64,000 bases of DNA, taken from NCBI RefSeq assembly GCF_001761485.1, contig NC_090773.1, positions 1-64,000 on the forward strand, read 5' to 3'. Below, one piece after another: positions 1 to 22,183 of the stretch. The translations under genes and the position numbers were made by a program. This stretch comes from Yarrowia lipolytica. Taxonomy: Eukaryota; Ascomycota; Dipodascomycetes; Dipodascales. Under the pieces are notes generated by a model, which was not told where the DNA came from, searched no databases, and worked only from the letters and a program-made list of their open reading frames with translations. Each line of letters starts with the position of its first letter. Positions within the stretch are counted from its first letter, which is position 1.

Positions 1-940
1 CACTAGGAACACGGTAATAGTTTTAAAATGGGGCCAAAAAAATGGTTTTTTGGAATTTAAAAATATGGGGATTCCGCCAAGGGACAGCCCCAAGAAGTCC
101 CTGGGGAAAAAGGGAGGGGCTGAGGGCAAGCCTACGAAGTCGTCCAGGCTACTTGGAAGAACTTTTCTTCCCCGTCCATGTTGGAAGCCAGGAGAGAAGT
201 CATCAGTCGATTTGGAGGACTCGGATCTACCGTGAATTTTAGAGGGACCGACAAAACCCTGTGGAGTCGGAGCTGACAGCTGAGACTGCCCCGACCGTGA
301 TCGCGAGACCAAGACTATTGGAAGTGGGCGTATTCTTCAACGAAAGGTATATCTTTGTCTATCGCCACCCTCCATCTGTTCATGACGGTAGCTGTTTCAT
401 GACCTCTTTCTAGGAGTCTTTCGTACCACCTGGCACAATATGATTAGCGATATTGTGCCGTCTTGATTGACACGTTGGGAGCGCCACAGGGGTCTTCTAA
501 GGGGGATATATGAACGTGAGGCCAATGGTGTCGTGCTCGAAGCCCATAAGAGCATTCCCATAGCACAGGAAGTCTTCCGTGGGATCAGTCTGCTCACCTG
601 TTCTCTGCCAAAGGGAGTCACGGATATTTGTCGAGGCTAAGTTTCCTCAACGTTACTAATACTTGGCCTCTCCGCTGTGTACGTGCAACTGTGTACTGGC
701 TATAACACCATTCTCCAACTCCAACAAGGTGAATAATCACGAGATCAAGGCGGTTCAGCAATGGTTCTCTACAAAAGATCGCTTCTACAACTACAAATAC
801 TGTTCAACTCTCTACAACTCAAATATTCGGGGGGACTCTTTGGTCCATGATTTATTAACCCAAGAGGTTCGGATTTTCACCTACTCCTCTTAAAAACTAG
901 ATAAACAGGTTCGGTCAGTTACATCCTCTGGCTAAGAGGT
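1..940. other. Gene-free subtelomere-like stretch
   Basis: No reading frame longer than about 75 codons with a credible start is seen, and no telomere repeat is visible at the left edge. Around 390-660 a few short frames on the + strand faintly recall the zinc-binding part of a Ty3/gypsy-type integrase. If real, this is an old and broken retroelement fossil. The resemblance is too weak to annotate as an element. Confidence 0.4.
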
Positions 941-949
941 TCACTGCCT

Positions 950-1830
950 ACTCCTTGAATAGTGTGACTTCGGCTCGTGCTCAGGCTCTCATTGCTCTTT
1001 GGACTTATTGGCAACTGGCTGGCCTCGGCTCTATGGCCCTGGCTCCTTCGGCTCTGTCTGTGCTCTGGCGTTTGGCGCTTATTGCATCTGTGGACTCACT
1101 GGCTCTTGCTCAGGCGAAATGGCTCTTATTGCTCTCTGGACTTAGTGGCTCGAATGGCGACCATGCGCTTATCGCCTTGAAGGACTTAGTGGCATTGACG
1201 TTGCTCTCACGGCGTTTGGCACTTATTGCCTTGAAGGGCTTACTGGCTCTTTGCTCGTGTCATGGGTTCTGGCTCTGGCATTTCAGCGCTGGCTCTGACC
1301 TGTGTGGCTCTTGCTCTTTGGACTTATGGCTCACACTCAGGCATCTGTGGCTCTGGCTATCGCTCTGACTCTGTGGTATCTGGCGTATCAGCTCTGGCTC
1401 ATGTCGCACTGGCTGTGGCTTATAGCTCTGGCTCTGGCTTGCTCTTTTGACCATGTATGGCGTCTGTCAAAGCAGATCTTTGCTCTACAACTGGCAGCTC
1501 TGGCATTTCAGCTTGGCTCTTCAGATTCTAGGCGGCTTCTCATACAGGAATTTCACCCTATGAGACTTCACAAAGGAGTTTCACCCTGTGAGTAAACAGG
1601 AATTTCACCTGTGGGAAAGGAGTCTCGAAAGGAGTTTCACCCTTGAAAATCTCTGTCGGTGGCTCTGCAGATGTTTCACTGTCTGGCTCTTTGCTCTGGC
1701 GGCTGCACATGTGGTCCTCAAGAACTCACAAGGCACGAGCAGGCTCAGGCATTTCAGCCGGCCAAACTCGCTCTTGGCTCATGGCATTTTCAGCTCATGG
1801 CGGTCAACCGGACGCACAGTCACGGACTTA
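950..1830. repeat. Degenerate GGCTCT-rich tandem repeat
   Basis: The + strand is built from diverged copies of a CT-rich unit. One recurring block reads approximately CTTATTGCTCTTTGGACTTA followed by TGGCTC, with recognisable copies near 988, 1078, 1126, 1168 and 1222. Further on, the block GGCATTTCAGC recurs near 1276, 1503, 1748 and 1783, and GGARTTTCACC recurs four times between about 1549 and 1642. Unit spacing varies from about 42 to 90 bases, so this is an old, eroded minisatellite. The long leucine/alanine-rich frames across it follow from the repeat and are not genes. Confidence 0.65.
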
Positions 1831-3557
1831 CTGACACTTGGCGCAGGCTGTCGTACTCGCCTCTGTGTTGAACTCGCCGAGAAGCAAATCTCAGCTCAAA
1901 CGCCCAATCAGAAGCTGTCGCACATTCTCAGGCTCATACATCTTTTTCAATGCGTCATAGCGAGAGTCTCTTGACCGAAAAGGGCTCATGCGGTAAACGC
2001 GTCATTGCCCAAACAACTCAACGGACATGGCTAGCGAAGCGGTCCTCGTTGTAGGGGACAGGTCTGCTTATCAGCTCTGCATCTCAGCAGGCTATAAAAG
2101 GCACCTTCCATCTCCAGAATGACTCAGAGTGAACTGGTCTGATTCTGATTGAAAAAGAGGGACGTAGAGGGTGTTTATATATTCCTTGCCGAGGCTGTTT
2201 AGGTTCGAAGAGGTTCGTCAGTGGCGAAAAAATGTGCATCGTTGATGCATGCATTATGCCAACGAATTTTTAGGGTGCAGGAGGAAGAAGTCGTCAGAAT
2301 CAGATGGAAAGCTCCAGAATGTGATGGTAGAGATATTTTGAAACAAATGCTGCAATGATGGCATACTTTAGTGGTAAAATTATGATTTAATTCTTCTAAA
2401 CAGTCCCATCTCAGTTTCCCTGCTACTTAGTAGACCCCAAAGATGCCATCCCTCCTTACATATCATAAAACCTTTAATTATGCACCAGCCCTCCTGGGCA
2501 AGAAAAATTGACAGAATAGCGGAGAATATTCCATGATACCGAAGCCACCTGAATCTTGATTTTGGAAGATAAAGGTTCCGACTGGAAGGATGTGGCATCA
2601 TCTGTGCAACAAACTGTCTTCTTAGCTCCCAAATATCCATCTTTTTTCCTTCCCTTGGGGTATTCAGAATGCATGCATGATGAGGAGGCTGGAACGGATG
2701 ACCTATATGTGAACTTGTGCAACAGGATAATGGCAAAACGCCGATTGATTCAAGTGTAAGAGTGCCGTTATCAAACCGTCATGTACCCTTAGCTTCTCAC
2801 TGATCTAAAAATAGCCTCGTAGAAGCCATCACGCCAACACAATGACTAATACGGAGAACATGGGTTGGAAACGGAACATGAAGGTGGCAAAAATAAGTAC
2901 CATCCCATTTGAAAATGAGCAAAAAAGTAATTGCAGCACCCAGGATTCTCGTATGGTCTCCCACTACAATACTAACTGGGCTCTCTGGTGCTTGACTATG
3001 GCTGATCAGACGGGAAGCCGTATTTTCACCAGGATATGGCCGCAACTGGTTTGACAAATGTAATATTCCATTTAACTGGCCAAACAAGTCATTTCACCGG
3101 CAAAAATACAATGAATCTGGAATGCCTATTGCGTAATATCTGGTAGAAGAACTTTTCTTGCATCAAAGTAACGTGGATGTGAATCAGTTCGAGTTTTTGG
3201 ACAAAGCATCAAGGTTAAGTAGGACTCAAATACTTCATAAAGAAGACAAATAACTGCTGGTGCACAGCTGTCAACTTCAGATACACTGAACTCAAGAGGA
3301 GAGATCAAACTGCGCATCAATACTGTTGTGGAGCGTGCGTCGTTGTGATTATGATTCTCATGGTCGCGTTTGCTTTTTATTCCCTTGTTGGTAAAGGTAC
3401 AAGTACGAATACAGTACATACTTTTGGAGTTTGGTATCTCTGAGTAAAGGCGGGGACTATAAGTCTGCTCGCACATTGAAGACTGTGACGATGGTGGAGC
3501 CTGCTGTAGGCGAACGGCAGTAGTGATGTGGCGGTAATCTGCTCGTAGAACTCTCTA
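1831..3557. other. Gene-free stretch
   Basis: Only short frames occur, several starting at non-ATG codons, on both strands and without recognisable domains. A TATA-like GCTATAAAAGGC lies near 2090 with no convincing gene downstream. Confidence 0.45.
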
Positions 3558-13318: not shown

Positions 13319-14269
13319 CACAACCCACACACACTCGTCTATTGCAACTGTAGGTTCCCTGACATCATCGTTCTACTCCTATGATCGTAGCGAACGATGG
13401 CGACACTTGCCTGTGATACCTGGAGACGTGCGAGATCTTCTTTCTTGCACATAATGAGTTTGGCTGTCTTATAATATTTTCCGGGCTGTGTATACCCGCT
13501 CCAACTGTCTGACATCGAGAATGGATAAAAATGGAACCACTTTGGGTCCCTAAGAAAGCAACGCAGCTGGAAACTACGTGAAAATGTGGACAAAGGAAAA
13601 GTTCCACTACAAGTACAGTACAGTACATAGTAGCCCGATCCAAGTGTCACTGTCTGTCCACAATCATCGATCCAAAGTGTCAACACAGCCCAGGCTGACA
13701 GCTCTTCGGCTCTGATCTTTGTCCCTAGTCTTGGATGTGAATGCTATTTTAGGAGGCAGTGACAGTCCTGAACGCGTGGCGCATAAACGAAAAAAATATA
13801 AAAAATCTCCGTCTCCAGGGCGATACGATCGCCGGCCAGCTTCTGAGGAAGCTGCAAAATTTACACAAGTACAAGATATCATATATACTAGTACAAATAC
13901 ACTGTACATGCAATATGTTTCAATGGCTGCTCCACATGAACTCTGTTGTATTTTCACCCCCTTTTACGCGTGTGACTGAAACCCAAATCTTATACAGTGC
14001 GTGTGGATCCCTTTTGAGAAGACAGCGCCCAGCGTCCATAAACACACAGCCGTGTGGATGGCACGAGCTAGCCGATGCTAGTGCAAAACTACTGTACAAT
14101 ACCGAGGAGAAAAATTATCTGGGTGAGCCACCAGCGACCAGCGAGTAATTTAATGATTTATTGAGTATTAAATTAAAAATGAGCCAGGGGACAAGATCCA
14201 TCTTGTCTCTATTCTACCAAAAGCCAGTTACAGTAATAAGTAAATACGATCCGTAAGACTGTATTAAAC

Positions 14270-14550
14270 TTACAGAAGCATGGCAACAGCGGCGATACCG
14301 GCAGCGGCGACAGATCCACCAATAGCAACGGCGCCGTTGGCAATGGGGATAGATCGGAAGAGCGGTTCAGGGTGGGGAGGGTGCCGTTGGTGGGGGCGTG
14401 GCAGCCTCCAGTTCCGCAAGAGGTGATGGTGGCGACAACAGTGGAGTTGACATGGACAATACCAGTCTCAGTGACGGTGGGAGCGACGGTAACGTTCTGG
14501 GCGGCAACAAGGCCGGCGGCAGAGATGAGGGCGAGGGCGGAGGTCTTCAT
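14270..14550 (-). CDS. Small secreted GPI-type cell-surface protein (frame broken by adapter)
   Basis: The product starts with a signal peptide (MKTSALALISAAGLVAAQ) followed by a Thr/Val-rich stretch with NVT and NST glycosylation sequons and a Cys pair in TSCGTGGCHAPTNG. As assembled, the frame then reads through foreign sequence and ends at 14209. The 20 bases at 14351-14370 are an Illumina adapter; leaving them out joins GTLPT directly to IPIANGAVAIGGSVAAAG and a hydrophobic tail ending AAVAMLL with a stop at 14270-14272. The resulting 86-residue protein has N-terminal signal and C-terminal GPI-attachment-like hydrophobic segments, as in small yeast wall proteins. I infer a wall or plasma-membrane location; the function is unknown. 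A TATA box lies about 85 bases upstream. Confidence 0.75.
14351..14370 (+). other. Illumina adapter embedded in the assembly
   Basis: The sequence AGATCGGAAGAGCGGTTCAG is identical to the first 20 bases of the Illumina paired-end adapter. It lies within the GPI-type gene and is exactly the length needed to explain the frameshift there. An identical copy in the opposite orientation is at 19071-19090. Confidence 0.95.
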
Positions 14551-18299: not shown

Positions 18300-21200
18300 T
18301 TAGTAGCTCAGTTTGTTAGCAAGTTGTTTTGCCCGCTCCTTAGCCTGCTTATACTTGGCACGTGCCTCCTCCAGCTGAGACGAACCCATAGGAGGCGCCA
18401 TCTCTCTCTGGAACTGTGTAAGCAGCGCAACCATTTGGTCAATGGGAGACAGCACCTGGATGTCCTGGAGAATCCGTTCCAGAGACTGCTCGCTGGGGGT
18501 GTTGGGGTCGGCATTGGCTGCCACCGAATAAACTCCGAGAACCTCACCAGTAAGGTTGGAGTGTGTATCCATGGACTTGGCAAGTGCATTGTCAAACATC
18601 ACCTCCGCCATGTTACGGGCCTCGGTATTGAAGTCATAGTTCTCGTTGACGCTCAGTTTCTGAGCCCACCCCATGTCGTTGTTCTGAGGATACTGAACGT
18701 CGAGGACATCCGCAGAGTGGACCAGAGGCATCATGAGGTGGACCCGGTTTCGAGCAACTCGCACCCACGAGTTCATGATGTTGTCAGCAATCAGAGGCAG
18801 CACAGGCAGGAAGTTGGGCAATTGGATAGGGCCGATAGAGCCAAACTGCGCCGTGTTTACAGTAGTACCGTTCTCGTTGTTGATTCGGATATCAATCGAC
18901 AGGCCTCGTCTCAGGTTGGCACAGTTCTTGTGCTCACAGTTATGGTTGTTGCAAGGCTCCTTGGGCTCTCCGGAGGGCTGAGGAGCAGGCGCAGGTACCT
19001 GAGATGGAAGGGGATACGGGCCGTCGGGAAGAGGGGTATGGATGGTCATCAACGGGGGGCGGGGGGAGGGCTGAACCGCTCTTCCGATCTAGGGTATGAA
19101 GGAGGCCCGTTACCAGGGTATCCGGGAAGAGGTTCTGAGGGGTAATCAACAGGACGCTGAGGCTGAGAAGGATTGTAGGGGTACGGAGGCGTAGGATTCG
19201 GCTGTGGCTGTGGCTGTGGCTGTGGCTGGTGAACCGGCCGCTGAGGCATGGACTCAGGCTCTTGTAGAGGAGGTGGGAAGGCATGGTGAGGAGGATGTAC
19301 AGGAGCCGCTCCTGGAGGTGCAGGAAGAGGAGTGCCATCTTCTCCATACCGTCTGTAGCCGCCACGGTTGCCATATCGGCTTCGAGACGAGGGGTATCTG
19401 TTGAAGGGACCTCGCCGTCGAGCCTGCTGTGACCTAGCCTTGCCAGAGCGATTGACGACAGTAGAATTAGCACCCGACATGGTGTTGTTGGACCCCTCCA
19501 AGGCCGAAAGATCACGCTTTACAGTGGTGCCGTTCTCATTGATCCGGATGTCCAGCTCAATGGTGCTCGAGCCCTTGTTTCGTGTGATGGGCCGGGGACG
19601 ATGATGCTTCTGGGGGTATCGGTCTCGCATGTCTCGCATGTCGTCACACTCGTCATGACCACAGTCAACCTCCTCGCAGGGCTCTCCAAACTTTTCCTTG
19701 TGCTTCTGTCTGAAAAGCTCGTGTAGATCCATCAAACCATTGTTCTTGGCCATCTCCTCTTGCTGGCTGATAATGGTCTCACGGATTTGTCGGCCGGATC
19801 GACCTCGGCCTCTCTGACGAGCAGAGGGGGTTCGGAACCAGTCTAACCGCTGGGTCTCAACCATGGTCTCGCCCTCCAAAGCATGACGCTTCTTCAACTC
19901 AGGCGCAGAAGTGCTATTGTCGGTGTCAGTGTCGTTCTCCTTGATTCGAATGTCGAGCTCGATACTGTTGCAGCCACCACAACCTCCACCGCCCTTACAA
20001 GGAGGATGGAACATCTTGAAAAGGCACTTGAGGTTCTGAGGAAGCAAATCTTCCACAGGAGGATGATTGATGCCACAGGGGGGCTTAAGAGGATCATCGG
20101 TGATGTTTCCGCCCTGCTCCTTGATTCGAATGTTCAGCTCAATTCGGCTTCGAGAGTTGTCACAGTCATCATGGCCACAATCCAGCTCACAACAGGGAGG
20201 ATGGAAATGCTTGAAGAGATCAAGAAGGTTCTGAGGGACGTACTCGGTCTCAGGGACAATGGCGGCAGGAGAAGGTGCAGGCCCCTGAGTTGCAGAGAAG
20301 ACGGAGGCATTGTGAGCTCGGATGATTTCAATCTCGATGGCACGACGAGCACGCAGACATCTCTCGTTCTCACAACCAGTGTCGTCACAAGGATATGACT
20401 TGTGCTTGTTCTTGGAGTGACGAACTCGAGAACGTCGATGACCAACGCGAGGGCCCATAGGATAGGCAGGGTGAGGCCAGGGGTAGGCATTGTCGTAGGG
20501 GTGATCGAAAGGGATAGGGTACGGCCACTGTGCACTCTCGACGTTGCCATCTGCAGAATCCTCAGGGACCTCATCACGACGGACATGGCCTTGCTTGTTG
20601 ATACGAATGTCAATCTCAATTTTTCTGGACCGCTGGCAGCTCTTGTGACCACAATTGGGATCGGGACAAGGCTTGGGGGCTGTGACTGGATCATTGTCGA
20701 TAGGTGTGGTGGGTGGAGGTGGAGAAGGATAGTCGGGGATAGGAGGAGGGTGGTCAAAGTCGGGATCGTGGTCGGGATCATGGTATGGATCATCGAAATC
20801 GTCATCGTAGTCGTCATCATCGTAGTCGTAGTCGTCATCGTCGTAGTGAGGCGGGTAATCGTCATCATCATCGTCATAGTAGGGCTCGTCCTCGTAACCG
20901 TCGTCATAATGATCATCGTAATCATCATAAGGCTGATCTTCCTTCAAGCTATCTCTGGGATCCATTGGCACATCGGAGGGTTGGGTGACGGGTGACTCGG
21001 CAGTGCTAGTGGCCTCAATAGATGTGGAGGTGTACTCGGAAACAGAAGTCTCCAAAGAGACAAGGGACTCCGAAGTAGCAGGGGACTCGGAAGTAGCAGG
21101 CACATCAGATGGAGATGCAGTGGTGGTAACAGTGACGTAGTCGACGGGGGTAGAGGACGTCTCGCTCATGGGGACCTCCGGCCATCCCGGAGCAGGACTG

Positions 21201-22183
21201 TAGATAGGTGGCTCAGGCTCTGTGGTTGGGGGTGTCCATGAATCCCAATCAGGCTCATAAGTGGTTGAGGGCTGAGGATAAGGCGAGATGATCTCGATGG
21301 GATCCTCGATGAGACCGCACTCTCCCTTGCACTTCTTGCGGTTGCAGCCTTCGCAGGGGTGCTTGGGGTCTTTGCCACACTTGCCAGGACACTGAGGAAC
21401 ATCGCAACCAGGACAAGGGGTATCGGGAACCTCACCACATTCGCCATTCTGGCACTCCTTCTCACCACAGCCACGGCACGGGTGGTCAGGCTCGTTAGGG
21501 GCGGGGGGCGCTTTCTTCTTGCACTTTCCACTGCATCCCTTCTTGCCGCACTTGCCACAGGTACTCTTTTTCTTCTTGGCCTGTTTGCACTTACCGCTGC
21601 AGCTCTTCTTGCCACAGCCCTTGCAGGCCTTCTTGTCGTGGTCCTCGACAACCTCGTAGTCGTCCATGGGGTCAGACATGCCATTCTCGGATTCCACCTC
21701 TGGGTGTCTCTGGAACAGACCACCGATGATCTTTCCGGCACGGAACAGAGGAAGTTTTCGAAGCGCATACTTGCGGCGACGAACCACCTTGTAGCAGGTC
21801 TCCTTCTTCTGGAAATCTAGCAGACAGAACTCGCGATTCCACATGGCCTCCATAGAAGAGAGAGAGGCGAGGCCGGCAATCTTCTCTTTGTTACCCCAGC
21901 CCACGAACCACAACTTCTTGGCGTCTGTGGGCTCACCATCCTGGCAGTGGACGGCGACGATGGAGGCTGAGAACTGGGGGTCCTCGACGAGGTGTGAGAA
22001 GTCGCCATCCGATACCACGACGGGAGAAGAGTAGACGACATCGTTGAAGATTCGGACTCCGGTGTATGGGTGCCAGGAGTTTTGCGTGGGGTCGCAGACT
22101 CTGTGCTTGGAAACAAAATTGTTTGCAGAAGCCGCTGTGACTATCGTCAGCCACAGCAACAGGGTCGCTTCTAATAATCTCAT
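18300..22183 (-). CDS. Very large secreted Cys-rich modular protein, unknown family (frame broken by adapter)
   Basis: As assembled, two frames (22183-19049 and 19052-18300) are separated by a 20-base Illumina adapter at 19071-19090. Without it they form one frame of 1287 residues. The ATG at 22183 gives a signal peptide (MRLLEATLLLWLTIVTAASA); the next upstream in-frame start would be GTG. After a 150-residue N-domain come five Cys units of the C-x2-C-x4-C-x3/4-C type (for example CKGCGKKSCSGKC) at 21317-21632, then a Pro/Ser/Thr stretch, a long Asp/Tyr run (20760-20935), and six modules made of a C..C.H..C cluster followed by IEIDIRINKQG-like sequence. A proline-rich hinge leads to the last module and a coiled-coil C-terminus (KYKQAKERAKQLANKL). 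It is probably extracellular or wall-associated. Metal binding is plausible from the Cys/His/Asp content but is inference. No family is recognised. Confidence 0.8.
19071..19090 (-). other. Second embedded Illumina adapter
   Basis: On the minus strand this reads AGATCGGAAGAGCGGTTCAG, identical to the copy at 14351-14370. Immediately before it the frame encodes PPSYP. Immediately after it the frame that continues with MTIHTPLPDGPYPLP begins, so the 20 bases exactly account for the split. Confidence 0.95.

What the first reader, a model, noticed from the sequence alone, without database searches (positions are those of the whole stretch)
19071..19090. Second, identical adapter in opposite orientation splits a giant secreted protein
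The same 20-mer on the minus strand separates two open frames (22183-19049 and 19052-18300). Both sides share the C..C.H..C plus IDIRIN module, so they belong to one protein. Two adapter copies within 5 kb suggest the assembly has a systematic gap-filling or trimming error, and other genes in this assembly may be broken the same way.
Basis: partly seen in the sequence, partly recalled or inferred. Interest (0 to 1): 0.88.

Follow-up and report, generated by a model that had tools for sequence, protein, structure and literature searches.

The report
Sequencing-adapter scars in a yeast genome
A 20-letter piece of laboratory sequencing adapter was left in the published genome of the yeast Yarrowia lipolytica W29, where it falsely cuts one secreted-protein gene in two; about 40 such scars are scattered over the assembly, so this is a data error and not biology.

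Summary
The six contig lengths equal those of the Yarrowia lipolytica W29/CLIB89 assembly (YALI1); the window is the left end of chromosome D. Window 19090-19071 (minus) is the first 20 bases of the old Illumina paired-end read-1 adapter; an identical copy lies at 14351-14370. Genome-wide the 13-base core occurs 40 times against 0 for the reversed control; 38 of 40 continue as that adapter for 15-24 exact bases, and two degenerate copies exist. The start is sharp in 26 of 26 testable copies, the end ragged; sequence after the adapter is less complex than before it in 30 of 38. This fits untrimmed read-through at Illumina contig ends later bridged with PacBio. In two relatives the protein (1301 and 1291 aa) runs unbroken across the site. 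The adapter overwrites rather than inserts: 56 nt lie between flanking conserved residues against 54 nt in relatives. The myosin-I gene is broken the same way. I found no mention of this in the papers searched. A useful quality-control result, no new biology.

The parts
19071..19090 (-). Illumina paired-end read-1 adapter remnant, 20 bases (21 if the next C is counted)
   Evidence: adapter identity from passages of PMC10038132 and PMC3784568
19035..19070 (-). C-rich junction after the adapter, opposite the PPPPP stretch of relatives; the frame changes in the adapter-plus-junction stretch
19049..22183 (-). N-terminal part of the split gene: signal-peptide-like start (by eye), Cys-rich and I-x-I-R modules; its last residues are adapter- and junction-coded
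18300..19052 (-). C-terminal part of the same gene, in another frame; its TTG start is only mechanical
14351..14370 (+). Second adapter remnant in the window, identical 20-mer, opposite orientation
14209..14550 (-). Small secreted, GPI-type protein frame hit by the second adapter (type recognised by eye; no relative compared); the hydrophobic GPI-like tail is in another frame beyond the adapter

Best explanation
The 20 bases are leftover Illumina adapter. Reads from short library fragments ran through into the adapter, and where true coverage collapsed (low-complexity stretches, often C-rich, G-rich or A+T-rich) the short-read contig ended in adapter bases instead of genomic ones. The hybrid pipeline then joined such contig ends with an error-prone long-read consensus, and the adapter stayed in the finished chromosome. 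Here it overwrote part of a proline-rich coding stretch and, together with the junction, changed the frame, so that one gene of about 1300 codons reads as two frames. Shown: adapter identity, genome-wide recurrence, sharp start and ragged end, the lower complexity after it, the unbroken gene in two relatives. Inferred: the read-through and contig-end step, and that the single-read library supplied the adapter.
For: Contig lengths and total equal the six of CLIB89 in Table 3 of PMC5014426. 40 exact hits of AGATCGGAAGAGC, 21 forward and 19 reverse, 0 in the reversed control. 38 of 40 continue as AGATCGGAAGAGCGG...; 0 of 40 follow the read-2 adapter beyond the core; searches with up to 3 mismatches gave 0 read-2 adapters (reversed control 4) and 2 TruSeq-like matches, 3 mismatches each (control 1). 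The interior 14-mer occurs 26 times, control 0, and these are the 26 exact 20-mers, so none of the 26 is cut at its 5' end; exact lengths run 15-24. The 60 bases after the adapter have lower trinucleotide entropy than the 60 before in 30 of 38 sites, means 4.39 and 4.85, p 1.5e-5; after-adapter against random places p 8.6e-12. Two relatives run through the site. Spacing is 56 nt here against 54 in both relatives, and 50 against 45 in myosin-I. Methods: Velvet contigs from Illumina reads, PacBio junctions with an estimated 8% consensus error, one single-read 97-cycle Illumina set. The words adapter, adaptor and trim do not occur in the main text. The oligo is the read-1 adapter.
Against: No raw reads and no second Y. 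lipolytica assembly could be examined; the relatives are another Yarrowia and an unnamed source. One further relative, P0005 (unnamed source, 186 aa), covers only the C-terminal part as a separate short protein; its DNA was not examined, so a short gene model, a break in that assembly or a real split cannot be told apart. 8 of 38 sites do not show lower complexity after the adapter, and the upstream side is itself slightly below random, p 0.04. For the copies that are not exact over 20 bases the full 5' end is partly a result of how they were sought. Two of the 40 core hits (L042, L048) do not continue as read-1 adapter. The S1 text with processing details was not readable (no supplement look-ups allowed).
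Confidence: 0.98

Rival explanations
1. The 20-mer is a chance genomic sequence and the gene really is two genes, or a pseudogene, in W29.
For: Both frames are long and open; no Y. lipolytica copy was compared; one unnamed relative is a 186-aa protein covering only the C-terminal part.
Against: 40 genome-wide core copies against 0 control; the same oligo at 38 sites, sharp start in 26 of 26 testable; collinear single protein in two relatives.
Confidence: 0.01
2. The adapter was a clean 20-base insertion into otherwise correct sequence.
For: 20 bases alone would shift the frame.
Against: The distance between flanking conserved residues is 56 nt here and 54 nt in both relatives, so almost no net length was added; APPVRY(H/Q) of the relatives aligns with adapter-coded residues only. 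Myosin-I shows the same, 50 against 45 nt.
Confidence: 0.05
3. Programmed frameshifting or a spliced intron joins the two frames in the cell.
For: Two adjacent frames with 4 bases of overlap.
Against: The relatives encode the stretch as ordinary Pro-rich protein in one frame; the supposed signal is a synthetic oligo found across the genome.
Confidence: 0.005

Closest known systems
Illumina paired-end read-1 adapter read-through (AGATCGGAAGAGCGGTTCAGCAGGAATGCCGAG)
   Same: 20 of 20 bases at this site, 15-24 exact bases at 38 sites; sequence and read-1 role seen in a passage of PMC10038132, same oligo in a passage of PMC3784568
   Different: Normally seen in reads and trimmed; here it sits inside finished chromosomes
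Assembly artefacts already reported for the W29 reference
   Same: PMC12888388 (passages seen) calls YALI1_D16990g, with 20 Phe, an artefact in the W29 genome
   Different: That case concerns a homopolymer; adapter remnants are not mentioned in the passages seen
Uncharacterised Yarrowia secreted protein (P0001, CJU90_2462 of Yarrowia sp. C11)
   Same: Collinear over both frames, 84% identical over the first and 90% over the second by tblastn
   Different: Unbroken in the relative

Membership tests
Illumina adapter contamination | Matches a known adapter from its first base | tested here: met
   20 of 20 bases here; 38 of 40 genome-wide core hits continue as the read-1 adapter
Illumina adapter contamination | Recurs at unrelated genomic places, far above chance | tested here: met
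   40 exact core hits, reversed control 0
Illumina adapter contamination | Sharp 5' end, ragged 3' end | tested here: met
   26 of 26 interior 14-mers have the full 5' end; exact lengths 15-24 at 38 sites
Illumina adapter contamination | Absent from the organism's DNA in independent reads | not testable with these tools
   No reads held
Single gene split by an artefact | Relatives encode both parts in one frame | tested here: met
   P0001 and P0002; P0005, a 186-aa C-terminal-only relative, was not resolved
Single gene split by an artefact | Another assembly of the same species has one gene | not tested
   No protein named as Y. lipolytica was returned

The most novel reading that the evidence does not exclude
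The reference genome of a widely used oleaginous yeast carries about 40 unreported adapter scars, placed before low-complexity (in genes, proline- or serine-rich) stretches, so that secreted and cell-wall proteins and at least one cytoskeletal motor (myosin-I, whose SH3 and acidic tail is cut off) are wrongly annotated as shortened genes, pseudogenes or strain differences.
Probability: 0.6. Interest if true: 0.35.

Novelty: not a real feature. Interest (0 to 1): 0.25.

Why it matters
W29/CLIB89 is described as the current RefSeq assembly of the species (passages of PMC12888388) and the same accession has been used for read mapping and variant calling (passages of PMC11784153). False sequence at about 40 places can mislead gene models, strain comparisons and primer or guide design; a list of the places lets users check them.

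Tried and rejected
Chance match: rejected by the genome-wide count and control. Pure insertion: rejected by spacing. Other adapters: read-2 form 0 hits (reversed control 4), TruSeq form 2 hits with 3 mismatches each (control 1), a PacBio hairpin piece 0 hits with up to 2 mismatches (control 0). One of the two TruSeq-like hits is the L048 site; I take it as chance but did not resolve it. C3:2126512 (L051), 3 mismatches, is not counted because it does not continue as adapter. L042 and L048 match only the 13-base core and were left out of the statistics; so were the degenerate copies L049 and L050. The Pfam scan of the focal protein gave no family reaching its cut-off; one weak hit for the C-terminal part (DASH_Spc34, E 0.073, below cut-off) was ignored. 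Structure prediction of the C-terminal part was not run: machine busy twice. Literature searches listed no report of adapter remnants in this assembly; only titles and abstract starts were seen except for the papers named in the report.

Full report
What was checked. The 20-mer AGATCGGAAGAGCGGTTCAG lies at window 19090-19071 on the minus strand and, identical, at 14351-14370 on the plus strand. In the window the 13-base core with up to one mismatch is found 2 times, both exact, against a shuffled mean of 0.13, and 0 of 100 shuffles reached 2.

Which genome. The six contigs measure 2,257,857, 3,044,971, 3,366,276, 3,629,463, 4,198,534 and 4,002,965 bases, total 20,500,066. These are exactly the CLIB89 lengths in Table 3 of PMC5014426 (section 5, part 1 of 2 seen). 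The window is therefore the left end of chromosome D of the W29/CLIB89 YALI1 assembly.

How many copies. Over the whole genome the core occurs 40 times exactly (21 forward, 19 reverse); the reversed control occurs 0 times. I fetched all 40 with 2 kb on each side. 38 of 40 continue as the read-1 paired-end adapter for 15 to 24 exact bases; 2 of 40 (L042, L048) match only the core. With up to 3 mismatches the 20-mer gives 40 hits, reversed control 2. Of these 40, 37 hold the exact core; of the three that do not, two continue as adapter (L049, 1 mismatch in 26; L050, 2 mismatches in 27, counted by eye) and one (L051) does not. So of 43 places examined, 40 look like adapter. With one mismatch allowed the 13-base core gives 79 hits against 26 in the control, so most of the further one-mismatch hits are expected by chance.

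Which adapter. A passage of PMC10038132 gives AGATCGGAAGAGCGGTTCAGCAGGAATGCCGAGACCG as the read-1 adapter and AGATCGGAAGAGCGTCGTGTAGGG... as the read-2 adapter of a 2 x 101 dataset; a passage of PMC3784568 gives the same pair to its aligner. The read-2 form was not found here with up to 3 mismatches (0 hits, reversed control 4). That only the read-1 side occurs would fit the single-read 97-cycle dataset of the assembly (Table 1); this is an inference.

Shape of the scars. The interior 14-mer GAAGAGCGGTTCAG occurs 26 times (control 0), and these are the 26 exact 20-mers, so none of the 26 is cut at its 5' end, while the 3' end is ragged. The 60 bases after the adapter are of lower trinucleotide entropy than the 60 before in 30 of 38 sites (mean 4.39 against 4.85, Wilcoxon p 1.5e-5), and the longest homopolymer is longer after it in 22 and shorter in 9 of 38 (p 0.005); random places in the same loci average 4.91. 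The upstream side is also slightly below random (p 0.04). The adapter thus tends to read from ordinary sequence into stretches that are hard for short reads. The methods describe Velvet contigs from Illumina reads joined by PacBio junction consensus with an estimated error of 8% (section 48); adapter, adaptor and trim do not occur in the main text.

The gene. A protein search with the N-terminal frame found 2 proteins, P0001 (Yarrowia sp. C11, 1301 aa) and P0002 (1291 aa, source unnamed), among the 8000 candidates scored. In tblastn P0001 residues 1-1055 match the first frame (84% identity) and 1052-1301 the second (90%); P0002 behaves alike (78% and 83%). A search with the C-terminal frame found one further relative, P0005, of 186 aa; it covers only the C-terminal part, and its DNA was not examined, so it neither helps nor settles. 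With two unbroken relatives, I take the two frames as one gene. Between the conserved SYP and PLPDG the two relatives have 18 residues (54 nt); the window has 56 nt, of which 20 are adapter. The adapter therefore took the place of coding sequence, and the frame difference is the net effect of adapter and junction. The relatives read PPPPP in this stretch, which is C-rich DNA.

A second gene broken the same way. At G000:C5:256373 (L035) the frame before the adapter carries the myosin motor (from within) and TH1 tail, and another frame after it carries an SH3 domain (Pfam). P0006 and P0007 (unnamed sources) hold these parts in one protein, with APPPPPP at the place of the adapter; the spacing is 50 nt here and 45 nt in both. 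At the other adapter of the window (L029) the small secreted-protein frame runs on past the adapter, while a GPI-like hydrophobic tail lies in another frame. Frames on both sides also suggest breaks in L010, L017, L026 and L037, the last with a CFEM domain before the adapter; these were not tested against relatives. In L022 (SUN family) the frame stays open through the adapter. The remaining sites were not assigned to genes.

In print. Searches (listings) and the passages of PMC12888388, PMC11784153 and PMC9865632 showed no mention of adapter remnants in this assembly; in PMC12888388 12 of 17 matching places were shown. Reports outside this library may exist.

Verdict.

Noticed in passing
window 14209-14550, minus strand: The other adapter copy sits in a small secreted, GPI-type protein frame; a GPI-like hydrophobic tail is readable in another frame beyond the adapter.
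   Followed up: partly
L035 (G000:C5:254373-258373): A class I myosin gene is cut between its TH1 tail and its SH3 domain by an adapter remnant.
   Followed up: yes
window 1-3177: PMC5014426 says that the first 3,177 bases at the 5' end of chromosome D were appended from the CLIB122 assembly, so this end of the window would be from another strain.
   Followed up: no
window 18300-22183, minus strand: The focal protein has no Pfam family above cut-off and only a Yarrowia and unnamed hits. Its relative P0001 carries a signal-peptide-like start (by eye), 3 CxGC-type motifs, an Asp-rich tract, 4 Cys/His motifs and 6 I-x-I-R strands by pattern. Function unknown.
   Followed up: partly
38 adapter sites, genome-wide: The base before the adapter is G 15, T 14, C 8, A 1: A is nearly absent.
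   Followed up: no
G000:C4:14351/19078 and C3:1318806/1323432: Two pairs of adapter copies face each other about 4.6-4.7 kb apart, against an average spacing of about 500 kb.
   Followed up: no
L048 (G000:C6:2851051): This core hit does not continue as read-1 adapter but matches the TruSeq form with 3 mismatches; chance or a damaged copy of another adapter.
   Followed up: no
YALI1_D16990g (outside the window): PMC12888388 (passages) calls this W29 gene an artefact with a homopolymer; a further reported fault of the same assembly.
   Followed up: no
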